DNA of 64,000 bases from assembly GCA_001767435.1 (NCBI GenBank), contig MEKT01000199.1, forward strand, positions 1 to 64,000, given 5' to 3'. Below are positions 7,170 to 56,185 of the stretch, one piece after another. The notes under the pieces were generated by a model that was given only the letters and a program-made list of their open reading frames with translations, was not told the DNA's origin and did no database searches. Source of the stretch: Acidobacteria bacterium RIFCSPLOWO2_02_FULL_65_29. Lineage in GTDB: Bacteria; Acidobacteriota; Vicinamibacteria; Vicinamibacterales; CAVVIG01. Made by a program: the position numbers and the translations under genes. Position 1 is the first letter of the stretch; every line of letters starts with the position of its first letter.

Positions 7170-7866
7170 CCTCCTATTCTATATCTCGGGTTCAGCCGTG
7201 GCGTTTCACGCGCAGCCGCCCGACCAGCTCTACGCCGATCGCGCGAACCTGGCGAGCGCGCGGCGCGCCGCCGACGCGTGGGCAGCCGAGCTCACGGGGA
7301 ACCCCACGGCCTTCGACGCGGCCTGGAAGCTGGCGCGGGCCGATTACTGGCTGGGCGGGCACGCGCGGGAGAACGAACGGCGCACGTTCCTCGAAGCCGG
7401 CATCGAGGCCGGCCGGAAGGCCGCCGCCCTCCAGCCGTCCCGCCCCGAGGGCCATTTCTGGATCGCCGCCAACATGGGCGCGCTGGCCGAGTCGTTTGGT
7501 CTCCGCGCGGGGCTCAGGTATCGAAAGCCCATTCGCGAGGAGCTGGAAACCGTGTTGAAGATCGACCCGGCGTTCATGCACGGGTCAGCCGATCGCGCGC
7601 TGGGTCGCTGGTATTTCAAAGTGCCGGGGCTGTTTGGCGGGAGCGACAAGAAGGCCGAGGCGCATCTGCGCGCATCGTTGACATACAACGATCGCAGCAC
7701 GATCTCGCGCTTCTTCCTGGCCGAAGTACTGCTCGACACCGGGCGCAAGGAGGAAGCGCGCGCCGAGATCCAAAGGGTGATCGACGCGCCGCTCGATCCC
7801 GACTGGGCGCCGGAGGATCTGGAGTACAAGGCGAAGGCGCGCGCGCTCCTGGCGAGGCTGAAGTAG
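7156..7866 (+). CDS. TPR/TatT-like exported protein
   Basis: Internal ATG start; signal-like N-terminus, [52 protein letters not shown]. Confidence 0.65.
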
Positions 7867-10308: not shown

Positions 10309-11343
10309 ATGGCCACGTTATTCCTTTACGGGCCCTTAGCCCCTCCCCTTAGCCCTATGACGAGAGCCATAATGAGCTCGGTGGACAACGCAAAGGAGGA
10401 GAAATGCGCCACGAATGTTGAATGGGCGATCATGTGCTCCCGGTCCCACGACCTCGACGAGCTCGGCGCCTACCTGAATCTCGACACGACCCGCAGCGGC
10501 CGGCTGGGTGAGCTGCAGACGAACGCGCGAGACGCGACCATCGCGGCGTTCGGACCGCCGCGATTCACACGGCTCTACTACGGCGTCGAGTTCTGCGAGC
10601 GGCTCGTACCGGCTGCGAGCCAGGTGCGCCGCGCCTATGAAGCCGCAACGTGCAGGCGTCTGTCTTTTTCTCTTCTCACCCCGTATGTGACCGACGCGGG
10701 CCTCGGTCGGTTGTGGCCGCTCTTTGAGTGGCTTGCCGCCTTAGACGACAGCTCCGCCGAAGTCGTGGTGAACGACTGGGGCGTTCTGCACCTGCTGCGG
10801 CGGGACTTCCCGCGACTCCGCCCGGTCCTCGGGCGCCTGATGAATCGCATGCTCCGCGACCCGCGGATCGCCGGGGAGTTCGCGAGTCCTCAGGCGCCGG
10901 CCGCGGCGTTGCAGGTCCTGCGGCAGTCAGGCGTCACCGCTGCGCTCTTTCGTCGGTTCCTGGGCCAGGTCGGGATCACCATGGTCGAGTTCGACAACCT
11001 GCTCCAAGGCCTGGACATGAACTTCCGGGAGTTCGGCCTGTCCGCCTCGCTCTACATCCCCTACGGCTACGTCGCGACGGGGCGGGTGTGCGCGATAGGC
11101 TCGCTTCAACTCCCCCGCAGACAGAAATTCGATGTCGAAGCAGTCTGTCGCCAGGAGTGCCGGCTCAACACCCTGTGTTTCGAGTACTCCGACTCGCCGT
11201 TCGGCAATCGCGATCAGGAGTTTATCGAGCAGGGCAACACCTATTTCTACTGTCAAGACCGCCGGACGATTGCGTCGGGTGCCGAGATGGTCGAGCGGCT
11301 GGGGATCAGCCGGATCGTCTATCAACCCCGGCTGCCTATGTAA
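10309..11343 (+). CDS. U32 peptidase-family-like protein (UbiV-like partner); start uncertain
   Basis: VVVNDWGVLHLLRRDFPRLRPVLGRLMNRMLRDPRI and C-terminal Cys cluster GRVCAIGS...CRQECRLNTLCFEY. Confidence 0.7.
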   Translation: MATLFLYGPLAPPLSPMTRAIMSSVDNAKEEKCATNVEWAIMCSRSHDLDELGAYLNLDTTRSGRLGELQTNARDATIAAFGPPRFTRLYYGVEFCERLVPAASQVRRAYEAATCRRLSFSLLTPYVTDAGLGRLWPLFEWLAALDDSSAEVVVNDWGVLHLLRRDFPRLRPVLGRLMNRMLRDPRIAGEFASPQAPAAALQVLRQSGVTAALFRRFLGQVGITMVEFDNLLQGLDMNFREFGLSASLYIPYGYVATGRVCAIGSLQLPRRQKFDVEAVCRQECRLNTLCFEYSDSPFGNRDQEFIEQGNTYFYCQDRRTIASGAEMVERLGISRIVYQPRLPM

Positions 11344-50947: not shown

Positions 50948-51685
50948 TCAGCGTCCGTTGGGGAGCCGCGGCGCGTGTTCCAGGGCCACCGCCTTCGGGA
51001 ACAACACGTTGTTTTCGAGGTGCACGTGCTGATGCAGGTCGTGCTCGAATTCCTCGAGCTCGGACATGCAGGCCGCGTAGGTCGCGCAGCCATCGGCAGG
51101 AACGGCGTAGCCGTCGGTCAGCTCGCGGATGACGCGCATCTCGTCGGCGGCCTCGCGATGCTCGCGTTCCAGCATCGCCAGAGGAGTCTCCACCGTGCCG
51201 AACGGGCTCAGGAAGACGCCAAAGCCCCGCTCGGCGTGTTCGGCGAGATCGCGAATGTAGGGAAAGATGACGTGCTCCTCCTTCGCCAGGTGCTGCTCGA
51301 GGTCGGCGCCGAGCTCGTCGAACACCGTCGCGATACAGGCCAGCTCGGGATGGCGCGCGCCGTGCACGTCCCGCAATGTCGCAAGATGGCAGGAGATCGT
51401 CGGGATGACGGAGCGAACGTAGCTGTGATGTGTCGCGATGATGTGGTCGATGATGCGATCCAGTCGCCAGTCGCCTACGTCGGTGTGACCCTGCGCCCGC
51501 GGCGGCAGGGTGCCGAGCGCATTGACGACAGCCGACGGATCCGCCGCGGCCGAACGGCACGCGTCGGTCAACGATCGGCGGCCGCCACAGCAGAAATCGA
51601 TGCCGAACCGGTCGAATACCCCCGCGGCACGGGAATCTGCCGCCACAATCTCGCCGACGGTCGCATCCTCCAGCCGATCGACCAT
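50948..51685 (-). CDS. Iron-sulfur cluster repair di-iron protein (RIC, ScdA/YtfE family)
   Basis: N-terminal ATVGEIVAADSRAAGVFDRFGIDFCCGGRRSL plus hemerythrin-like HIIATHHSYVR, HLAKEEHVIFPYI, EHREAADEM. Confidence 0.92.
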   Translation of the reverse strand: MVDRLEDATVGEIVAADSRAAGVFDRFGIDFCCGGRRSLTDACRSAAADPSAVVNALGTLPPRAQGHTDVGDWRLDRIIDHIIATHHSYVRSVIPTISCHLATLRDVHGARHPELACIATVFDELGADLEQHLAKEEHVIFPYIRDLAEHAERGFGVFLSPFGTVETPLAMLEREHREAADEMRVIRELTDGYAVPADGCATYAACMSELEEFEHDLHQHVHLENNVLFPKAVALEHAPRLPNGR

Positions 51686-51775: not shown

Positions 51776-51822
51776 GCTCCCACATCGCCGCCAATCGTAG
51801 CCAGGACCCGGGACCGGGCGGT

Positions 51823-51836
51823 ATGACACAGGTCAT
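51823..51836. promoter_or_regulatory. Putative Crp/Fnr-type site ATGAC-ACAG-GTCAT between RIC and the regulator gene
   Basis: Perfect 5-bp inverted repeat; minus-strand TACGAT at 51794-51799 lies ~30 bp from its centre. Confidence 0.65.
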
Positions 51837-52544
51837 GTGCGATACGATGGCGGCGTGCAACCGCCCATCGACGAGATGCTGCGCCGGAGTCCGATCTTCC
51901 ATCGGCTCACGCCGGAAGACCGCCAACGGCTGACTGCGGTCGCCCTGGTGCGAGAGTTCGACAAGGGGGCGATGCTCTTTTCCGAAGGCGATCCGTCGGA
52001 TTTCCTCTATACCGTGATCGTCGGCCGCGTGAAGGTATTCAAGGTCACGGCGCGCGGCACCGACGTCATCCTCGAGATTTTCGGCCCGGGCGACTCGGTC
52101 GGCGCCGTCGCGGTCTACGAAACCCGGCCCTACCCGGCGAGCGCGGTGGCCGTGGCGCAGACGACGTGCCTGCTCCTGCCGCGGCCGGCGTTCTTTGCGC
52201 TGCTCGAGACCCACCCGACCCTGGTACGGGGCCTGCTGGTGGGGCTCACGCGGCGCTTGGTCGACCTGACCAACCGGCTCACCGAGCTCTCGGGCGGCCA
52301 CATCGAACCGCGCCTCGCGCGGCTGTTTCTGAAGCTCGCCGACGACATGGGACAGCGGCGCAAAGACGGCGTGTTCATCCCGATGGCGCTGTCACGCCAG
52401 GAGCTGGCCGACATGATCGGCACCACGATCGAGACGGCCATTCGCATCATGAGCCGCTGGGGAAAGGAAGACATCGTCCGAACCGAGAAAGACGGCTTCC
52501 TGCTGATCGATCGGAGCGCGCTCGAGGCGCTCGCCCTTACCTGA
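51837..52544 (+). CDS. Crp/Fnr-family transcriptional regulator (start may be internal, e.g. GTG 51855)
   Basis: cNMP-binding fold; HTH SRQELADMIGTTIETAIRIMSRWGKEDIVR; no N-terminal Fnr Cys cluster. Confidence 0.92.
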   Translation: MRYDGGVQPPIDEMLRRSPIFHRLTPEDRQRLTAVALVREFDKGAMLFSEGDPSDFLYTVIVGRVKVFKVTARGTDVILEIFGPGDSVGAVAVYETRPYPASAVAVAQTTCLLLPRPAFFALLETHPTLVRGLLVGLTRRLVDLTNRLTELSGGHIEPRLARLFLKLADDMGQRRKDGVFIPMALSRQELADMIGTTIETAIRIMSRWGKEDIVRTEKDGFLLIDRSALEALALT

Positions 52545-53598
52545 CGTGCTTCTTCAGCGCCAACGCGCCGCCGCGGATTGCCGCGGTGAACACCGCGCCG
52601 TGGACATCCGCCGCAACGCCTTCGATGAGAGCTGTGCCTTCCGCGTCCGGGGCGGGAATGAAATAGCGGACCCTGCCGTCGGCGGCGCTCCCGATCCGAA
52701 CCCCACGCGCCCAGCCGGGATTCGATCGGTCATCTGACTCCGAGTCCGCGGCGTAGAGCGCGTCGTTTCCGTCGATGAAGATGCCGCTCACGCGGCCAAA
52801 CTGTCTCCACGCGCCAAGAAATGTCCCTTCCTGGCTGAAGATCTGAATCCGATCGTTGCCGCGGTCGGCGACCAGGAGCCGGCCTCGAGAGTCGAACGCG
52901 AGACCGTGCGGCGTCCTGAACTCCCCCGGATCCCCTCCCAGCCGGCCCCACGACATCAGGAATCGCCCCTCCTTCGTGAACTTCGCAATGCGCGCCACGG
53001 TATGCGCCGGAGCATTCGGGTCCTGGCCGCTGTGGCCATCGGCGACGAAGATGTCGCCATTCGGGGCGGTCGCGACATCGCACGGTTCGTTGAGGCGCTC
53101 GCCGGTCCCGTCGCCGGCAACTCCCGGCGTTCCAAGCGTCAGCAGGACCTTGCCGTCGGGGCTGAACTTGTACACGGCGTGACCCTTGCCGAGTCGACTC
53201 GCGTTCGCTTCGTTTGGTCCCTCCGCTGGTCCCTCCGCGTCGGTCACCCAGACGTTCCCGTCGCGATCCACGTGAATGCCATGGGGAAGGTTGAACATCC
53301 GTTCGCCGAACCTGCGGACGAGATTCCCGCCTGCATCGAACTTCAGCACGGGGTTCAACCTGGAGCCGGCGCAGTTGTCGGCGGCGCAGCGATCGGCCAC
53401 CCAGACAGAGGTACCGTCAGCGTCGATATCGACGGCGCTGGCAGACTCCCACCATCTCCCCTCGGCGAGCTTGAAGTGATTCTCGATCGTGCGATACGGA
53501 TTCGGCAAGTCGCCGGGTTGGAGTCGGTGCCGCGAGGCCTGCGCCGCTCCGGACGCCGCCACGAGGACCGCAAGGAGGAAAACCAGAGTGGTTCTCAT
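52537..53598 (-). CDS. Exported NHL-repeat protein
   Basis: NLPHGIHVDRDGNVWVTDAEG, EPCDVATAPNGDIFVADGHS, FRTPHGLAFDSRGRLLVADRGNDRIQIF. Confidence 0.87.
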   Translation of the reverse strand: MRTTLVFLLAVLVAASGAAQASRHRLQPGDLPNPYRTIENHFKLAEGRWWESASAVDIDADGTSVWVADRCAADNCAGSRLNPVLKFDAGGNLVRRFGERMFNLPHGIHVDRDGNVWVTDAEGPAEGPNEANASRLGKGHAVYKFSPDGKVLLTLGTPGVAGDGTGERLNEPCDVATAPNGDIFVADGHSGQDPNAPAHTVARIAKFTKEGRFLMSWGRLGGDPGEFRTPHGLAFDSRGRLLVADRGNDRIQIFSQEGTFLGAWRQFGRVSGIFIDGNDALYAADSESDDRSNPGWARGVRIGSAADGRVRYFIPAPDAEGTALIEGVAADVHGAVFTAAIRGGALALKKHVR

Positions 53599-53632
53599 AC
53601 GTCCTACGCGCGCCGGCGCGCGTCAGAATTAA

Positions 53633-53724
53633 ACTCACGTGGGGCTCCGCCCCACACCCCGGCTCGGTCGCTTGCGGGGACCCCTACGCCCCGCGCCGCT
53701 CCCCTCGCAGGCGCGCCGTGCGCC
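53633..53724 (-). repeat. Composite repeat, copy B (uninterrupted): ...GGTCCCCGCAAGCGACCGAGCCGGGGTGTGGGGCGGAGCCCCACGTGAGT on minus
   Basis: Reverse complement aligns with 38151-38375 except for two extra segments in the latter. Confidence 0.88.
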
Positions 53725-53838
53725 AAACCCGTCTTGATTCTTAATTTCGCAATCCGCACTGAGGACGCGCGCCGGACCGGCGAGCGAGTCGCCGGTCCGG
53801 CCACAGCCGCGGGCGCGAAATCCGTCGAGGGTTGCTCC

Positions 53839-54291
53839 TCAGTGGGACTCGCCGCCGGCGGCCTGACGCTTGTAGTAGATCAATTCCTGGCCGACCCTCG
53901 CGCCTGGCGCGAACCACGCCACCACCCGCTGCGGCGCGCCCACCACGGACGGTTCGGCAAAGCGTACCTCGAAGTCATCGGTCGCGGTGGCCCGCGTCAG
54001 TTGAATGGTGAAGGTCTGTGTGTACACCTGCTCGCGATCGGCGCTGAGCACCTGGAGCACGCCAGCGGACGGTCGGCTGAACACATAGGTGCCCTGGGCC
54101 AGGGACACGCCCGGGACCGAGAACGGACCGCTGAAGGTGAGGATGGCGTCGGTGGTGCTGCCGGCCATGGCCGCCCCGCGCACCTTCACCTCCTGATGAA
54201 ACTGGGGAGCCTGGGCCCCAGCCCAACCTCCCGAGAGCCCGACCGCCGCGCCCAGCGCGGCCAGAAACAGGAACGTCTTGAAGAATCTCAT
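53839..54291 (-). CDS. Hypothetical exported protein
   Basis: Signal peptide MRFFKTFLFLAALGAAVGLSGGWAGAQA; RBS aggagctccatATG. Confidence 0.78.
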   Translation of the reverse strand: MRFFKTFLFLAALGAAVGLSGGWAGAQAPQFHQEVKVRGAAMAGSTTDAILTFSGPFSVPGVSLAQGTYVFSRPSAGVLQVLSADREQVYTQTFTIQLTRATATDDFEVRFAEPSVVGAPQRVVAWFAPGARVGQELIYYKRQAAGGESH

Positions 54292-54347
54292 ATGGAGCTC
54301 CTTTCTCATCCTCTGACCCAGCATAGGTCCCTCGCAGCGGCTGTGGC

Positions 54348-54363
54348 TATGACGGGCGTCATA
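54348..54363. promoter_or_regulatory. Putative Crp/Fnr-type site TATGAC-GGGC-GTCATA
   Basis: 6-bp inverted repeat; minus-strand TATGCT -10-like box at 54320-54325 ~30 bp from its centre. Confidence 0.65.
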
Positions 54364-54418
54364 CGAGGTCCGGACAGTGCTTCGCTCACCCGCTCATCAG
54401 GAACGCGGGAAGCCGTGC

Positions 54419-54787
54419 TTACGGCTTCCGAGGCCCCCGCACGGTGATCATCACCGTGTTGGACGCCGTCACGCTGCCGTTGTCGGCGACCGCCGTGACC
54501 TCAACCTTCCCGTCCCGAGCCGGAGCGGTCCACTCGGTCTCGCGCTCCGAGGCGTTGGCGAAGCTCCCGGCCTTCGCCGACCAGCGGATCGTCAGCGGCT
54601 TACGGTTCGGGTCTTCGGCGTACGCGTGAACAACGGTGCTCTTCCCCGCTTCGACGGTGCAGGGATCGCAGTACACAAATACTCTCGGCGGCGCGTTTGG
54701 CGCCGCACCTCGCTGCTGCGCGGCCGCCGAAGTCGCGCCGAACACACACACGGCTGCGACGCCGATTACACGAAGCCCACTCATCAT
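54419..54787 (-). CDS. Hypothetical exported protein with Ig/PKD-like segment
   Basis: Signal peptide MMSGLRVIGVAAVCVFGATSAAAQ; VFVYCDPCTVEAGKSTVVHAYAEDPNRKPLTIRWSAKAGSF. Confidence 0.72.
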   Translation of the reverse strand: MMSGLRVIGVAAVCVFGATSAAAQQRGAAPNAPPRVFVYCDPCTVEAGKSTVVHAYAEDPNRKPLTIRWSAKAGSFANASERETEWTAPARDGKVEVTAVADNGSVTASNTVMITVRGPRKP

Positions 54788-54840
54788 CGGAGGCCTCCTT
54801 TGTGTCTCATACACTCTGACGTTTGCACGGAGCCGAACGG

Positions 54841-54856
54841 TATGACGGCCGTCATA
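54841..54856. promoter_or_regulatory. Putative Crp/Fnr-type site TATGACGGCCGTCATA (perfect 16-bp palindrome)
   Basis: Between divergent genes 54419-54787(-) and 54930-55358(+). Confidence 0.65.
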
Positions 54857-54929
54857 CATGGGAAGCGCGCCATCGATTAGCCTGCGGCTTGCGAAGCCGA
54901 TCCCGATTGGCACAAGGAGCTGTCAAGGA

Positions 54930-55358
54930 ATGGCGCAGCAAACGCTCCCCATCGACCTCGTGCGAAGCATTCGACGCGCATTTGTCGATGCGCCGGACTT
55001 GCGACTCCGGCTCGGCCAGGCGCGATGCCTCGGTGATGCGAGCGGCCCGGTGTGCCGAGCCGCGCTGCGCGTGCTCGTCGACACCGGATTCTTGTCGCGA
55101 GCAGGCGATGGCACCTACGTGCGGTGTGCCAGCCAGCGCTCTTCCTCGCCTGATGGGCGCACGCTGGCGGACGATTCGCGGTGGGACTGCTGCTGGGCCG
55201 TCCCCATGCTGGCCGACGCCCCGCTGTGGCTGGACGGCTGGCTGACGCAATGGACGTGTCTTCGGGACGGCGGGCCAAGGATTCTGGGCGCCCACGACTG
55301 TGAACGCTGCCCGAGGTGGGAGCCGCGGCTCGTCACGCATCGCCCCGCCAGTCCCTAG
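54930..55358 (+). CDS. Small protein with winged-helix-like segment
   Basis: LRLRLGQARCLGDASGPVCRAALRVLVDTGFLSRAGDGTYVR. Confidence 0.55.
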   Translation: MAQQTLPIDLVRSIRRAFVDAPDLRLRLGQARCLGDASGPVCRAALRVLVDTGFLSRAGDGTYVRCASQRSSSPDGRTLADDSRWDCCWAVPMLADAPLWLDGWLTQWTCLRDGGPRILGAHDCERCPRWEPRLVTHRPASP

Positions 55359-55361
55359 CTC

Positions 55362-55396
55362 ACGTGGGGCGCCGCCCCACACCCCGGCACGAGCGC
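55362..55396 (-). repeat. Partial third copy of the GTGGGGC...GCCCCACGTGAG repeat
   Basis: ctcacgtggggcgccgccccacaccccggcacg. Confidence 0.7.
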
Positions 55397-55552
55397 CAGC
55401 GACTCGAGCGCGTCGCGATCGAGCACGACGAAGCGCACGCACGCCACCGCCGCGATCGGTTGGCGGTCCTCCAAAAACTCAGGCCGCGGAAAATCGCGAT
55501 CCGCCGCACGAGCTCATCCGTCACCACGCCCATCGCCTCAGTGCTCTCGCGG

Positions 55553-55568
55553 TATGACGATCATCATA
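55553..55568. promoter_or_regulatory. Putative Crp/Fnr-type site TATGAC-GATC-ATCATA (one mismatch)
   Basis: ~48 bp upstream of hemerythrin-domain CDS. Confidence 0.5.
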
Positions 55569-55615
55569 GGACATCGCTCCTCCGCTCGGTACCGTGAGTG
55601 TGGAAGAGTCCAATG

Positions 55616-56185
55616 GCCATGCGCGAGCTCGACGCGCTGCGTTCGACGACAGGCGAAGGCGAGGCGGCCGACTGGCAGATCGAGCCGCTCATCGACCACA
55701 TCGTGTCGCACCATCACACGTACGTCCGCAACGCGCTGCCCTCCATCGGCAGCGCGCTGGCGACACTGGAGACCGTGCACGGGCGGCGACATCCGGAGCT
55801 GGCGCAGGTCCGCTGGCATGTCGAGCAGCTTCGCCTGGATCTGTTCCATCATCTGCTCAAGGAGGAACATCTATTGTTCCCCTACCTGCGCGACCTCGCC
55901 CGGTACTCAGCCGATCCGGGCGTCGTCTCGAACAGTCCGTTCGGCACGGTCGAGAATCCGATTCGCATGCTGGAGCGGGAGCACCGCCACGCGGCCGAAG
56001 CGTTGCGTGCGATTCGCCAGCTGACGCGGGACTATCGGACGCCTCCCGACGGCTGCGCCAGCTACCGAGCGTGCATGGCCGAGCTCGCCGAGTTCGAGTG
56101 CGACCTGCACCGTCACCTGCACCTGGAAGACCGCGTGCTGTTCCCGAAAGCCCTGGAGCTGGAACGCATCGCCTGGCAGGAATAG
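55616..56185 (+). CDS. Hemerythrin-like domain protein (RIC paralog without ScdA N-terminal domain)
   Basis: HIVSHHHTYVRNALPSI, HLLKEEHLLFPYL, EREHRHAAEALRAIRQL, DLHRHLHLEDRVLFPKAL. Confidence 0.85.
   Translation, partial: AMRELDALRSTTGEGEAADWQIEPLIDHIVSHHHTYVRNALPSIGSALATLETVHGRRHPELAQVRWHVEQLRLDLFHHLLKEEHLLFPYLRDLARYSADPGVVSNSPFGTVENPIRMLEREHRHAAEALRAIRQLTRDYRTPPDGCASYRACMAELAEFECDLHRHLHLEDRVLFPKALELERIAWQE

What the first reader, a model, noticed from the sequence alone, without database searches (positions are those of the whole stretch)
51823..55568. Compact putative Crp/Fnr regulon with TATGAC-N4-GTCATA operators
Seen: ATGACACAGGTCAT (51823-51836), TATGACGGGCGTCATA (54348-54363), TATGACGGCCGTCATA (54841-54856), TATGACGATCATCATA (55553-55568), all in promoter positions within 4 kb. 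They neighbour a RIC gene, a Crp/Fnr regulator, two small exported proteins and a hemerythrin protein. For the RIC and 53839-54291 promoters, a -10-like box (TACGAT, TATGCT) begins ~30 bp from the palindrome centre, as for class II activation (-41.5). The same site would sit over the regulator's own promoter, suggesting autorepression. The recognition helix (IETAIR) keeps the E and R that contact the TGA/G part of Fnr-type sites. Inference: a nitrosative or oxygen-stress regulon controlled by the encoded protein.
Basis: partly seen in the sequence, partly recalled or inferred. Interest (0 to 1): 0.75.

Follow-up and report, generated by a model that had tools for sequence, protein, structure and literature searches.

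The report
New acidobacterial nitrogen-oxide gene switch
The four DNA palindromes are very probably docking sites for the neighbouring Crp/Fnr-type regulator, and across about 190 genomes of an almost uncultured class of Acidobacteria the same protein-and-site pair sits in front of genes for nitrate, nitric oxide and nitrous oxide metabolism, so a whole undescribed regulatory circuit can be read from sequence.

Summary
Confirmed and enlarged. The window is from a Vicinamibacterales (Acidobacteriota) genome. TATGAC-N4-GTCATA occurs 8 times exactly in its 5.5 Mb (reversed-pattern control: 0). In 193 genomes of the class, 57 of 65 with an ortholog of the window's Crp/Fnr regulator carry exact sites, against 6 of 128 without (Fisher 5e-33); 12 genera that contain both kinds of genome agree. 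Most exact sites lie in front of a gene. A -10 box starts 30-31 bases from the palindrome centre in dozens of promoters: class II (-41.5) activation. The regulator's own side almost never has it (2 of 24), which fits autorepression. Orthologs keep the recognition helix IETxIR; paralogs in site-less genomes have (Y/F)TVSR. Targets across genera: RIC, the regulator, nitrite-oxidoreductase-type operons, TIGR04053 radical SAM, Sec-type NosZ, quinol NO reductase, NapA, NarK, NnrS, hemerythrins. The signal (NO most likely) is inferred. The regulator fails the FNR and CRP membership tests. I also found an undescribed four-cysteine domain in a target gene (54930-55358) and fused to a paralogous regulator with a similar recognition helix.

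The parts
51822..51837 (.). Operator TATGACACAGGTCATG (one mismatch) between RIC and the regulator gene
   Evidence: equivalent site in 24 of 41 regulator orthologs at <=3 mismatches within 200 bp
51794..51799 (-). -10 box TACGAT of RIC, begins 31 bases from the palindrome centre
50948..51685 (-). RIC / YtfE-type iron-sulfur cluster repair protein (ScdA_N + hemerythrin)
   Evidence: PF04405 + PF01814; TIGR03652 222.6 bits, cut-off 204.7
51843..51848 (+). Possible -10 box (TACGAT) of the regulator gene, directly beside the operator, so that the operator would lie over the promoter
   Evidence: a comparable box follows the palindrome in close orthologs (by eye); inference
51855..52544 (+). Crp/Fnr-family regulator, recognition helix GTTIETAIRIMSRW (ORF opens at 51837; start 51855 preferred)
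   Evidence: PF00027 + PF13545; 41 orthologs aligned; model mean pLDDT 86.5
54348..54363 (.). Operator TATGACGGGCGTCATA (exact)
54320..54325 (-). -10 box TATGCT, begins 31 bases from the centre
53839..54291 (-). Target: small exported protein of unknown family
   Evidence: no Pfam family above cut-off
54841..54856 (.). Operator TATGACGGCCGTCATA (exact, fully palindromic), between divergent genes
54878..54883 (+). -10 box TAGCCT, begins 30 bases from the centre, for the gene at 54930
54930..55358 (+).
55182..55328 (+). Four-cysteine domain W-x-C-x-W...W-x-C...C-x2-C
   Evidence: E 4e-19, but this sequence was in the query alignment
54419..54787 (-). Possible target: exported Ig-like protein; only a weak -10 (CAGAGT at base 31, 54813-54818)
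   Evidence: Weak Big_2 match
55553..55568 (.). Operator TATGACGATCATCATA (one mismatch)
55590..55595 (+). -10 box TACCGT, begins 30 bases from the centre
55613..56185 (+). Target: RIC-like hemerythrin protein without the ScdA_N domain (ORF opens at 55598)
   Evidence: PF01814; TIGR03652 158.8 bits, below cut-off; a comparable truncated paralog in G018 (C9:33665) lies about 80 bp downstream of an exact site

Best explanation
The protein at 51855-52544 is a Crp/Fnr-family activator of a distinct clade found in the class Vicinamibacteria. As a dimer it binds TATGAC-N4-GTCATA (weaker forms TATGAT/ATCATA). At its targets the palindrome is centred at about -41.5/-42.5, replacing the -35 element, and the protein recruits RNA polymerase from there (class II activation). 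At the divergent RIC-regulator promoter the same site activates RIC and covers the regulator's own promoter, limiting its synthesis. The regulon serves nitrogen-oxide respiration and protection from the NO this makes; in the window's genome it includes RIC, a RIC-like protein and the other genes of the 4-kb cluster, and an operon for a nitrite-oxidoreductase-type molybdoenzyme with a cytochrome c/ethylbenzene-dehydrogenase-like subunit. Shown by sequence statistics: the regulator-site link, position of sites before genes, -10 spacing, and target identities. Inferred: physical binding, direction of regulation, autorepression, and the signal, for which NO sensed without an Fe-S cluster (DNR/HcpR-like, possibly haem) is most likely (about 0.55; low oxygen 0.2; nitrite, nitrate or other 0.25).
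For: Own genome: 8 exact and 7 one-mismatch sites; exact-pattern control 0. Class: 57/65 ortholog-positive versus 6/128 ortholog-negative genomes carry exact sites, 165 sites against 2 control hits, Fisher 5e-33, with 12 genera showing within-genus agreement. Of 68 exact sites in the own genome and relatives, 56 face a gene start. TANNNT boxes at base 30/31: 36 in 136 arms, against 0-2 at any other offset; 73 of 174 arms have a -10-like box at 29-32 versus about 7.5 expected. Arms facing the regulator: 2 of 24; arms facing away: 16 of 24. Recognition helix IETxIR conserved but (Y/F)TVSR in paralogs of site-less genomes. The outer A is specific: with C, G or T there the motif shows no excess in ortholog-positive genomes. 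Targets: RIC, NosZ, NapA, qNOR, NnrS, NarK, YwiC, Kuenenia-like NxrA at 1770 bits. Orthologs co-occur with RIC, Fisher 3e-18.
Against: No binding or expression data. 8 ortholog-positive genomes have no exact site (they may use degenerate sites) and 6 ortholog-negative genomes have some. The own genome lacks a qNOR hit at E<=1e-80, and qNOR follows the regulator only weakly (p 0.002); most qNOR genes in the class have no site. Some sites have no recognisable target or -10 box. Gene calls in relatives come from my own codon-bias picker, so intergenic counts are approximate.
Confidence: 0.86

Rival explanations
1. The sites are read mainly by another Crp/Fnr protein of the same genome, in particular the paralog at C8 (locus L171) that carries a four-cysteine N-terminal domain and nearly the same recognition helix (VETSIR).
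For: L171 has the ETSIR helix. Genome G175 has 5 exact sites, no close ortholog, but a protein of this second type (L181, ETCIR) with a one-mismatch site beside it.
Against: The four-cysteine type could be detected in only a few genomes, whereas exact sites follow the window's ortholog in 57 genomes. The more common paralogs have a different helix and occur in genomes without sites.
Confidence: 0.12
2. The regulator works like FNR: the signal is loss of oxygen, and nitrogen-oxide genes are induced as a consequence of anoxia.
For: Targets include anaerobic respiratory genes (NosZ, NapA, YwiC-like, cytochromes).
Against: Only one conserved cysteine (C105) and no N-terminal cysteine cluster in the window protein; NCBIfam FNR model 50.7 bits against a cut-off of 228. 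The commonest targets are RIC and hemerythrins, classic NO-damage genes.
Confidence: 0.2
3. The palindromes are a repeated element or another protein's site and have no link to this regulator.
For: Identical sites recur in the genome (TATGACGGCCGTCATA several times).
Against: Flanks differ, the regulator and sites co-vary across independent genera, and the -10 spacing is fixed at 30/31, which a repeat would not explain.
Confidence: 0.02

Closest known systems
DNR of Pseudomonas (NO-responsive Crp/Fnr activator of nir, nor, nos)
   Same: Family, no Fe-S cysteine cluster, overlapping target set (nos, nor, nnrS; PMC1274295), -41.5-type promoters; best TM-score among the listed PDB matches (0.75 to 3dkw)
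   Different: Operator TATGAC-N4-GTCATA instead of TTGAT-N4-ATCAA; about 27% identity; core targets are RIC and an NXR-type operon; haem binding not shown
HcpR (Fnr-like regulator of hcp; cyanobacterial sites TTGACnnnnGTCAA, PMC1274295)
   Same: TGAC-N4-GTCA core; NO-stress genes including dnrN (RIC) in some genomes
   Different: Outer bases T-A instead of T; no hcp target seen in the loci examined; relation to the HcpR clade not tested by a tree
FNR / ANR
   Same: Class II promoters, E and R of the recognition helix, anaerobic genes
   Different: No N-terminal cysteine cluster; TATGAC not TTGAT; far below the FNR model cut-off
CRP / GlxR
   Same: Overall fold; best sequence matches in the PDB are mycobacterial CRP and GlxR
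   Different: cAMP-contacting positions are not kept; TGTGA operator not used

Membership tests
Crp/Fnr superfamily | cNMP-type sensor barrel plus C-terminal Crp helix-turn-helix | tested here: met
   PF00027 80 bits, PF13545 58.6 bits, both above cut-off; fold search
FNR | N-terminal cysteines that bind a [4Fe-4S] cluster | tested here: not met
   Only Cys105 in the window protein; no conserved N-terminal cysteine in 42 aligned sequences
FNR | NCBIfam PRK11161 above cut-off | tested here: not met
   50.7 bits, cut-off 228
FNR / ANR / DNR | Operator TTGAT-N4-ATCAA (or TTGAC-N4-GTCAA) | tested here: not met
   For the TGAC core the excess is specific to A before TGAC; C/G/T at that position show no excess with the regulator. 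TTGAT-N4-ATCAA itself was not scanned
CRP (cAMP) | Glu and Arg of the cAMP phosphate pocket | tested here: not met
   Alignment to cAMP-bound mycobacterial CRP: GEL is GAV, PRTSSA is PYPASA; conserved so in orthologs. Identity of the pocket residues from general knowledge
CRP (cAMP) | NCBIfam PRK11753 above cut-off | tested here: not met
   58.7 bits, cut-off 266
DNR | Controls denitrification and NO genes | tested here: met
   NosZ, qNOR, NapA, NnrS, NarK, RIC behind sites in relatives
DNR | Haem-dependent NO sensing | not testable with these tools
   No histidine is invariant in the orthologs; haem ligands in HcpR/DNR are themselves not settled (PMC12750200)
HcpR | hcp in the core regulon | tested here: inconclusive
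   No hybrid cluster protein identified among the target proteins clustered, but not searched genome-wide
Class II activated promoters | Activator site centred near -41.5 with a -10 box at the matching distance | tested here: met
   -10 box at base 30/31 after the centre; transcription starts not mapped

The most novel reading that the evidence does not exclude
Two Crp/Fnr regulators with different sensors read the same operator: the window protein (no metal-binding cysteines) and a fusion of an undescribed four-cysteine domain to a Crp core (own contig C8; G175). The same four-cysteine domain is itself encoded by a regulon target (54930-55358) and occurs near nar genes, RIC and regulators in other genomes, so it may be a new Fe-S or zinc redox/NO sensor module that feeds back on the circuit.
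Probability: 0.25. Interest if true: 0.72.

Novelty: new variant of a known kind. Interest (0 to 1): 0.62.

Why it matters
Vicinamibacteria are abundant in soil and almost uncultured. I found no description of nitrogen-oxide gene regulation in them in the open-access library searched. A motif whose presence predicts its regulator in about 90% of genomes lets one read from metagenomes which genes (NosZ, NO reductase, nitrite-oxidoreductase-type enzymes) are run as one programme, which bears on soil N2O budgets and on whether NXR-type enzymes there work as nitrate reductases. It also gives a clean natural test of how Crp/Fnr recognition-helix residues set operator choice (IETxIR with TATGAC).

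Tried and rejected
First regulator alignment mixed strands and was discarded; redone. One-mismatch site at 10356: inside an ORF, no -10 box, taken as chance. qNOR as a general core target: rejected, only G007 and G021 show it near a site. Repeat-element origin: rejected because of the fixed -10 spacing and co-loss with the regulator. Motif with C/G/T in place of A: hits exist but two genomes carry clear repeat families and the rest show no link to the regulator. Fold search: most matches have large rmsd from domain rotation, so the DNR match (rmsd 4.0) is weak evidence on its own. Literature searches gave no report of this motif; subscription papers were not searchable.
Full report
Observation. 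Two match TATGAC-N4-GTCATA exactly (54348, 54841) and two with one mismatch (51822, 55553). In the window, matches at up to two mismatches number 6 against 0.34 expected, and four of the six lie in this 4 kb. In the held loci of the own genome the exact half-sites face each other only at a 4-base gap (8 times, gaps 0-12 tested).

Genome-wide. The window lies in a 5.5 Mb Vicinamibacterales genome (the order is inferred from the named relatives). It has 8 exact and 7 one-mismatch sites; the reversed pattern gives no exact hit. Beyond the window cluster they lie in front of: the first gene of an operon for a nitrite-oxidoreductase-type molybdoenzyme (C36:7824; first gene a cytochrome c protein starting at 7768, whose relative in G016 carries cytochrome c and EB_dh domains; alpha subunit matches Kuenenia NxrA 7b04 with 1770 bits; beta and chaperone subunits); a TIGR04053 radical SAM gene and a divergent exported protein (C36:10310 and 10355); a cytochrome c beside a multicopper oxidase (C35:7712); divergent SMP30-like and exported redox-type genes (C172:6856); a TPP-enzyme-like gene (C228:10138); and three sites just beyond the window end on the same contig (65923, 68467, 68563).

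Link to the regulator. In 60 relatives, 27 of 28 genomes with a close ortholog of the window regulator carry exact sites and 2 of 32 without do; the reversed pattern has none in all 60. In all 193 held genomes of the class the table is 57/8 versus 6/122, Fisher 5e-33. Twelve genera that contain both ortholog-positive and ortholog-negative species agree with the rule, so shared ancestry does not explain it. Of the six exceptions with sites but no ortholog, G175 has a divergent relative with the same kind of recognition helix; four of the other five are incomplete genomes (74-89%).

Specificity. Orthologs keep GTTIETxIRxMSRW. The common Crp/Fnr paralogs, present also in genomes without sites, have GTTL(Y/F)TVSR. 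The base before TGAC must be A: the same motif with C, G or T there shows no excess in ortholog-positive genomes although it covers nine letter combinations. That the residue next to the conserved Arg (Ile here, Ser in FNR, Gly in CRP) contacts this base is inference from known FNR and CRP work.

Mechanism. A -10-like box begins at base 30 or 31 after the palindrome centre: 36 TANNNT boxes at these two offsets in 136 arms, against 0-2 at any other offset. 73 of 174 arms have a scoring box at 29-32, against about 7.5 in control windows. This is the spacing of FNR/CRP class II promoters. In the window it holds for RIC (TACGAT), the 54291 gene (TATGCT), the 54930 gene (TAGCCT) and the 55613 gene (TACCGT). 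On the side facing the regulator gene it is nearly absent (2 of 24 orthologs, against 16 of 24 on the other side), and a -10-like box sits directly beside the palindrome. The simplest reading is activation of the neighbour and repression of the regulator's own promoter.

Target functions. Clustering of proteins behind sites gives RIC-type proteins (12 cases), cytochrome c proteins (12), the regulator (10), TIGR04053 radical SAM (7), a pyridine-nucleotide-disulfide/Fe-S oxidoreductase (7), and others (paired sites in one promoter count twice). Identified by models: Sec-dependent NosZ (781.8 bits, cut-off 625), NapA (1208 bits, cut-off 904), NarK-like and NapH-like below cut-off, NnrS, YwiC, hemerythrin, EB_dh-type cytochromes, quinol NO reductase (848.7 bits to a solved structure). 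Orthologs co-occur with RIC (49 of 65 versus 16 of 128, p 3e-18) and only weakly with qNOR. The core is therefore repair of nitrosative damage plus nitrogen-oxide respiration, with a lineage-specific outer layer. Rodionov and colleagues (PMC1274295) found the same functional core (dnrN/RIC, nnrS, nor, nir, nos) under DNR, NnrR, HcpR, NsrR and NorR in other phyla; that is the basis for inferring NO as signal.

What the regulator is not. It lacks FNR's cysteines, scores far below the FNR, CRP and FixK models, and lacks CRP's cAMP-contacting residues. Haem could not be tested. The AlphaFold model resembles DNR 3dkw best by TM-score among listed matches (0.75), which is suggestive only.

A second observation. 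The target at 54930-55358 ends in a domain W-x-C-x-W ... W-x-C ... C-x2-C without a Pfam family. A profile finds it in 29 of 193 genomes (weak hits uncertain), as about 70-aa proteins, fused to the N-terminus of a Crp-type regulator with the ETxIR helix (own contig C8 and G175), next to RIC (G177) and next to narJ/narI-like genes (G143, by eye). A metal-binding redox or NO sensor is a plausible guess, untested.

Verdict. A real, lineage-wide regulon with a previously unreported operator, as far as the open-access library shows. New variant of a known kind.

Noticed in passing
window 55182-55328; L171 (G000:C8); L181 (G175); L244-L252; L262: Undescribed four-cysteine domain (W-x-C-x-W...W-x-C...C-x2-C) in small proteins, in a regulon target and fused to Crp-type regulators; recurrent near nitrogen-oxide genes.
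   Followed up: partly
L018:120-7768 (G000:C36): Operon for a nitrite-oxidoreductase-type (Kuenenia NxrA-like) molybdoenzyme with a cytochrome c first gene, behind a one-mismatch operator with a -10 box at base 30; direction of the enzyme (nitrate reduction or nitrite oxidation) unknown.
   Followed up: partly
G000:C199:68467 and 68563 (beyond the window end): Two identical exact palindromes 96 bp apart upstream of a glutamine-amidotransferase-like gene (identified by eye).
   Followed up: no
G017 (TCTGACACGTGTCAGA) and G059 (TCTGACCCGGGTCAGA): Multi-copy palindromic repeat families with a TCTGAC half-site in two site-less relatives, probably repeat elements or another regulator's sites.
   Followed up: no
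L018:10403-12813: TIGR04053 radical SAM gene followed by a COX1-like membrane protein of about 430 aa that recurs near sites in several genera (also L113, L145) and has no family above cut-off.
   Followed up: no
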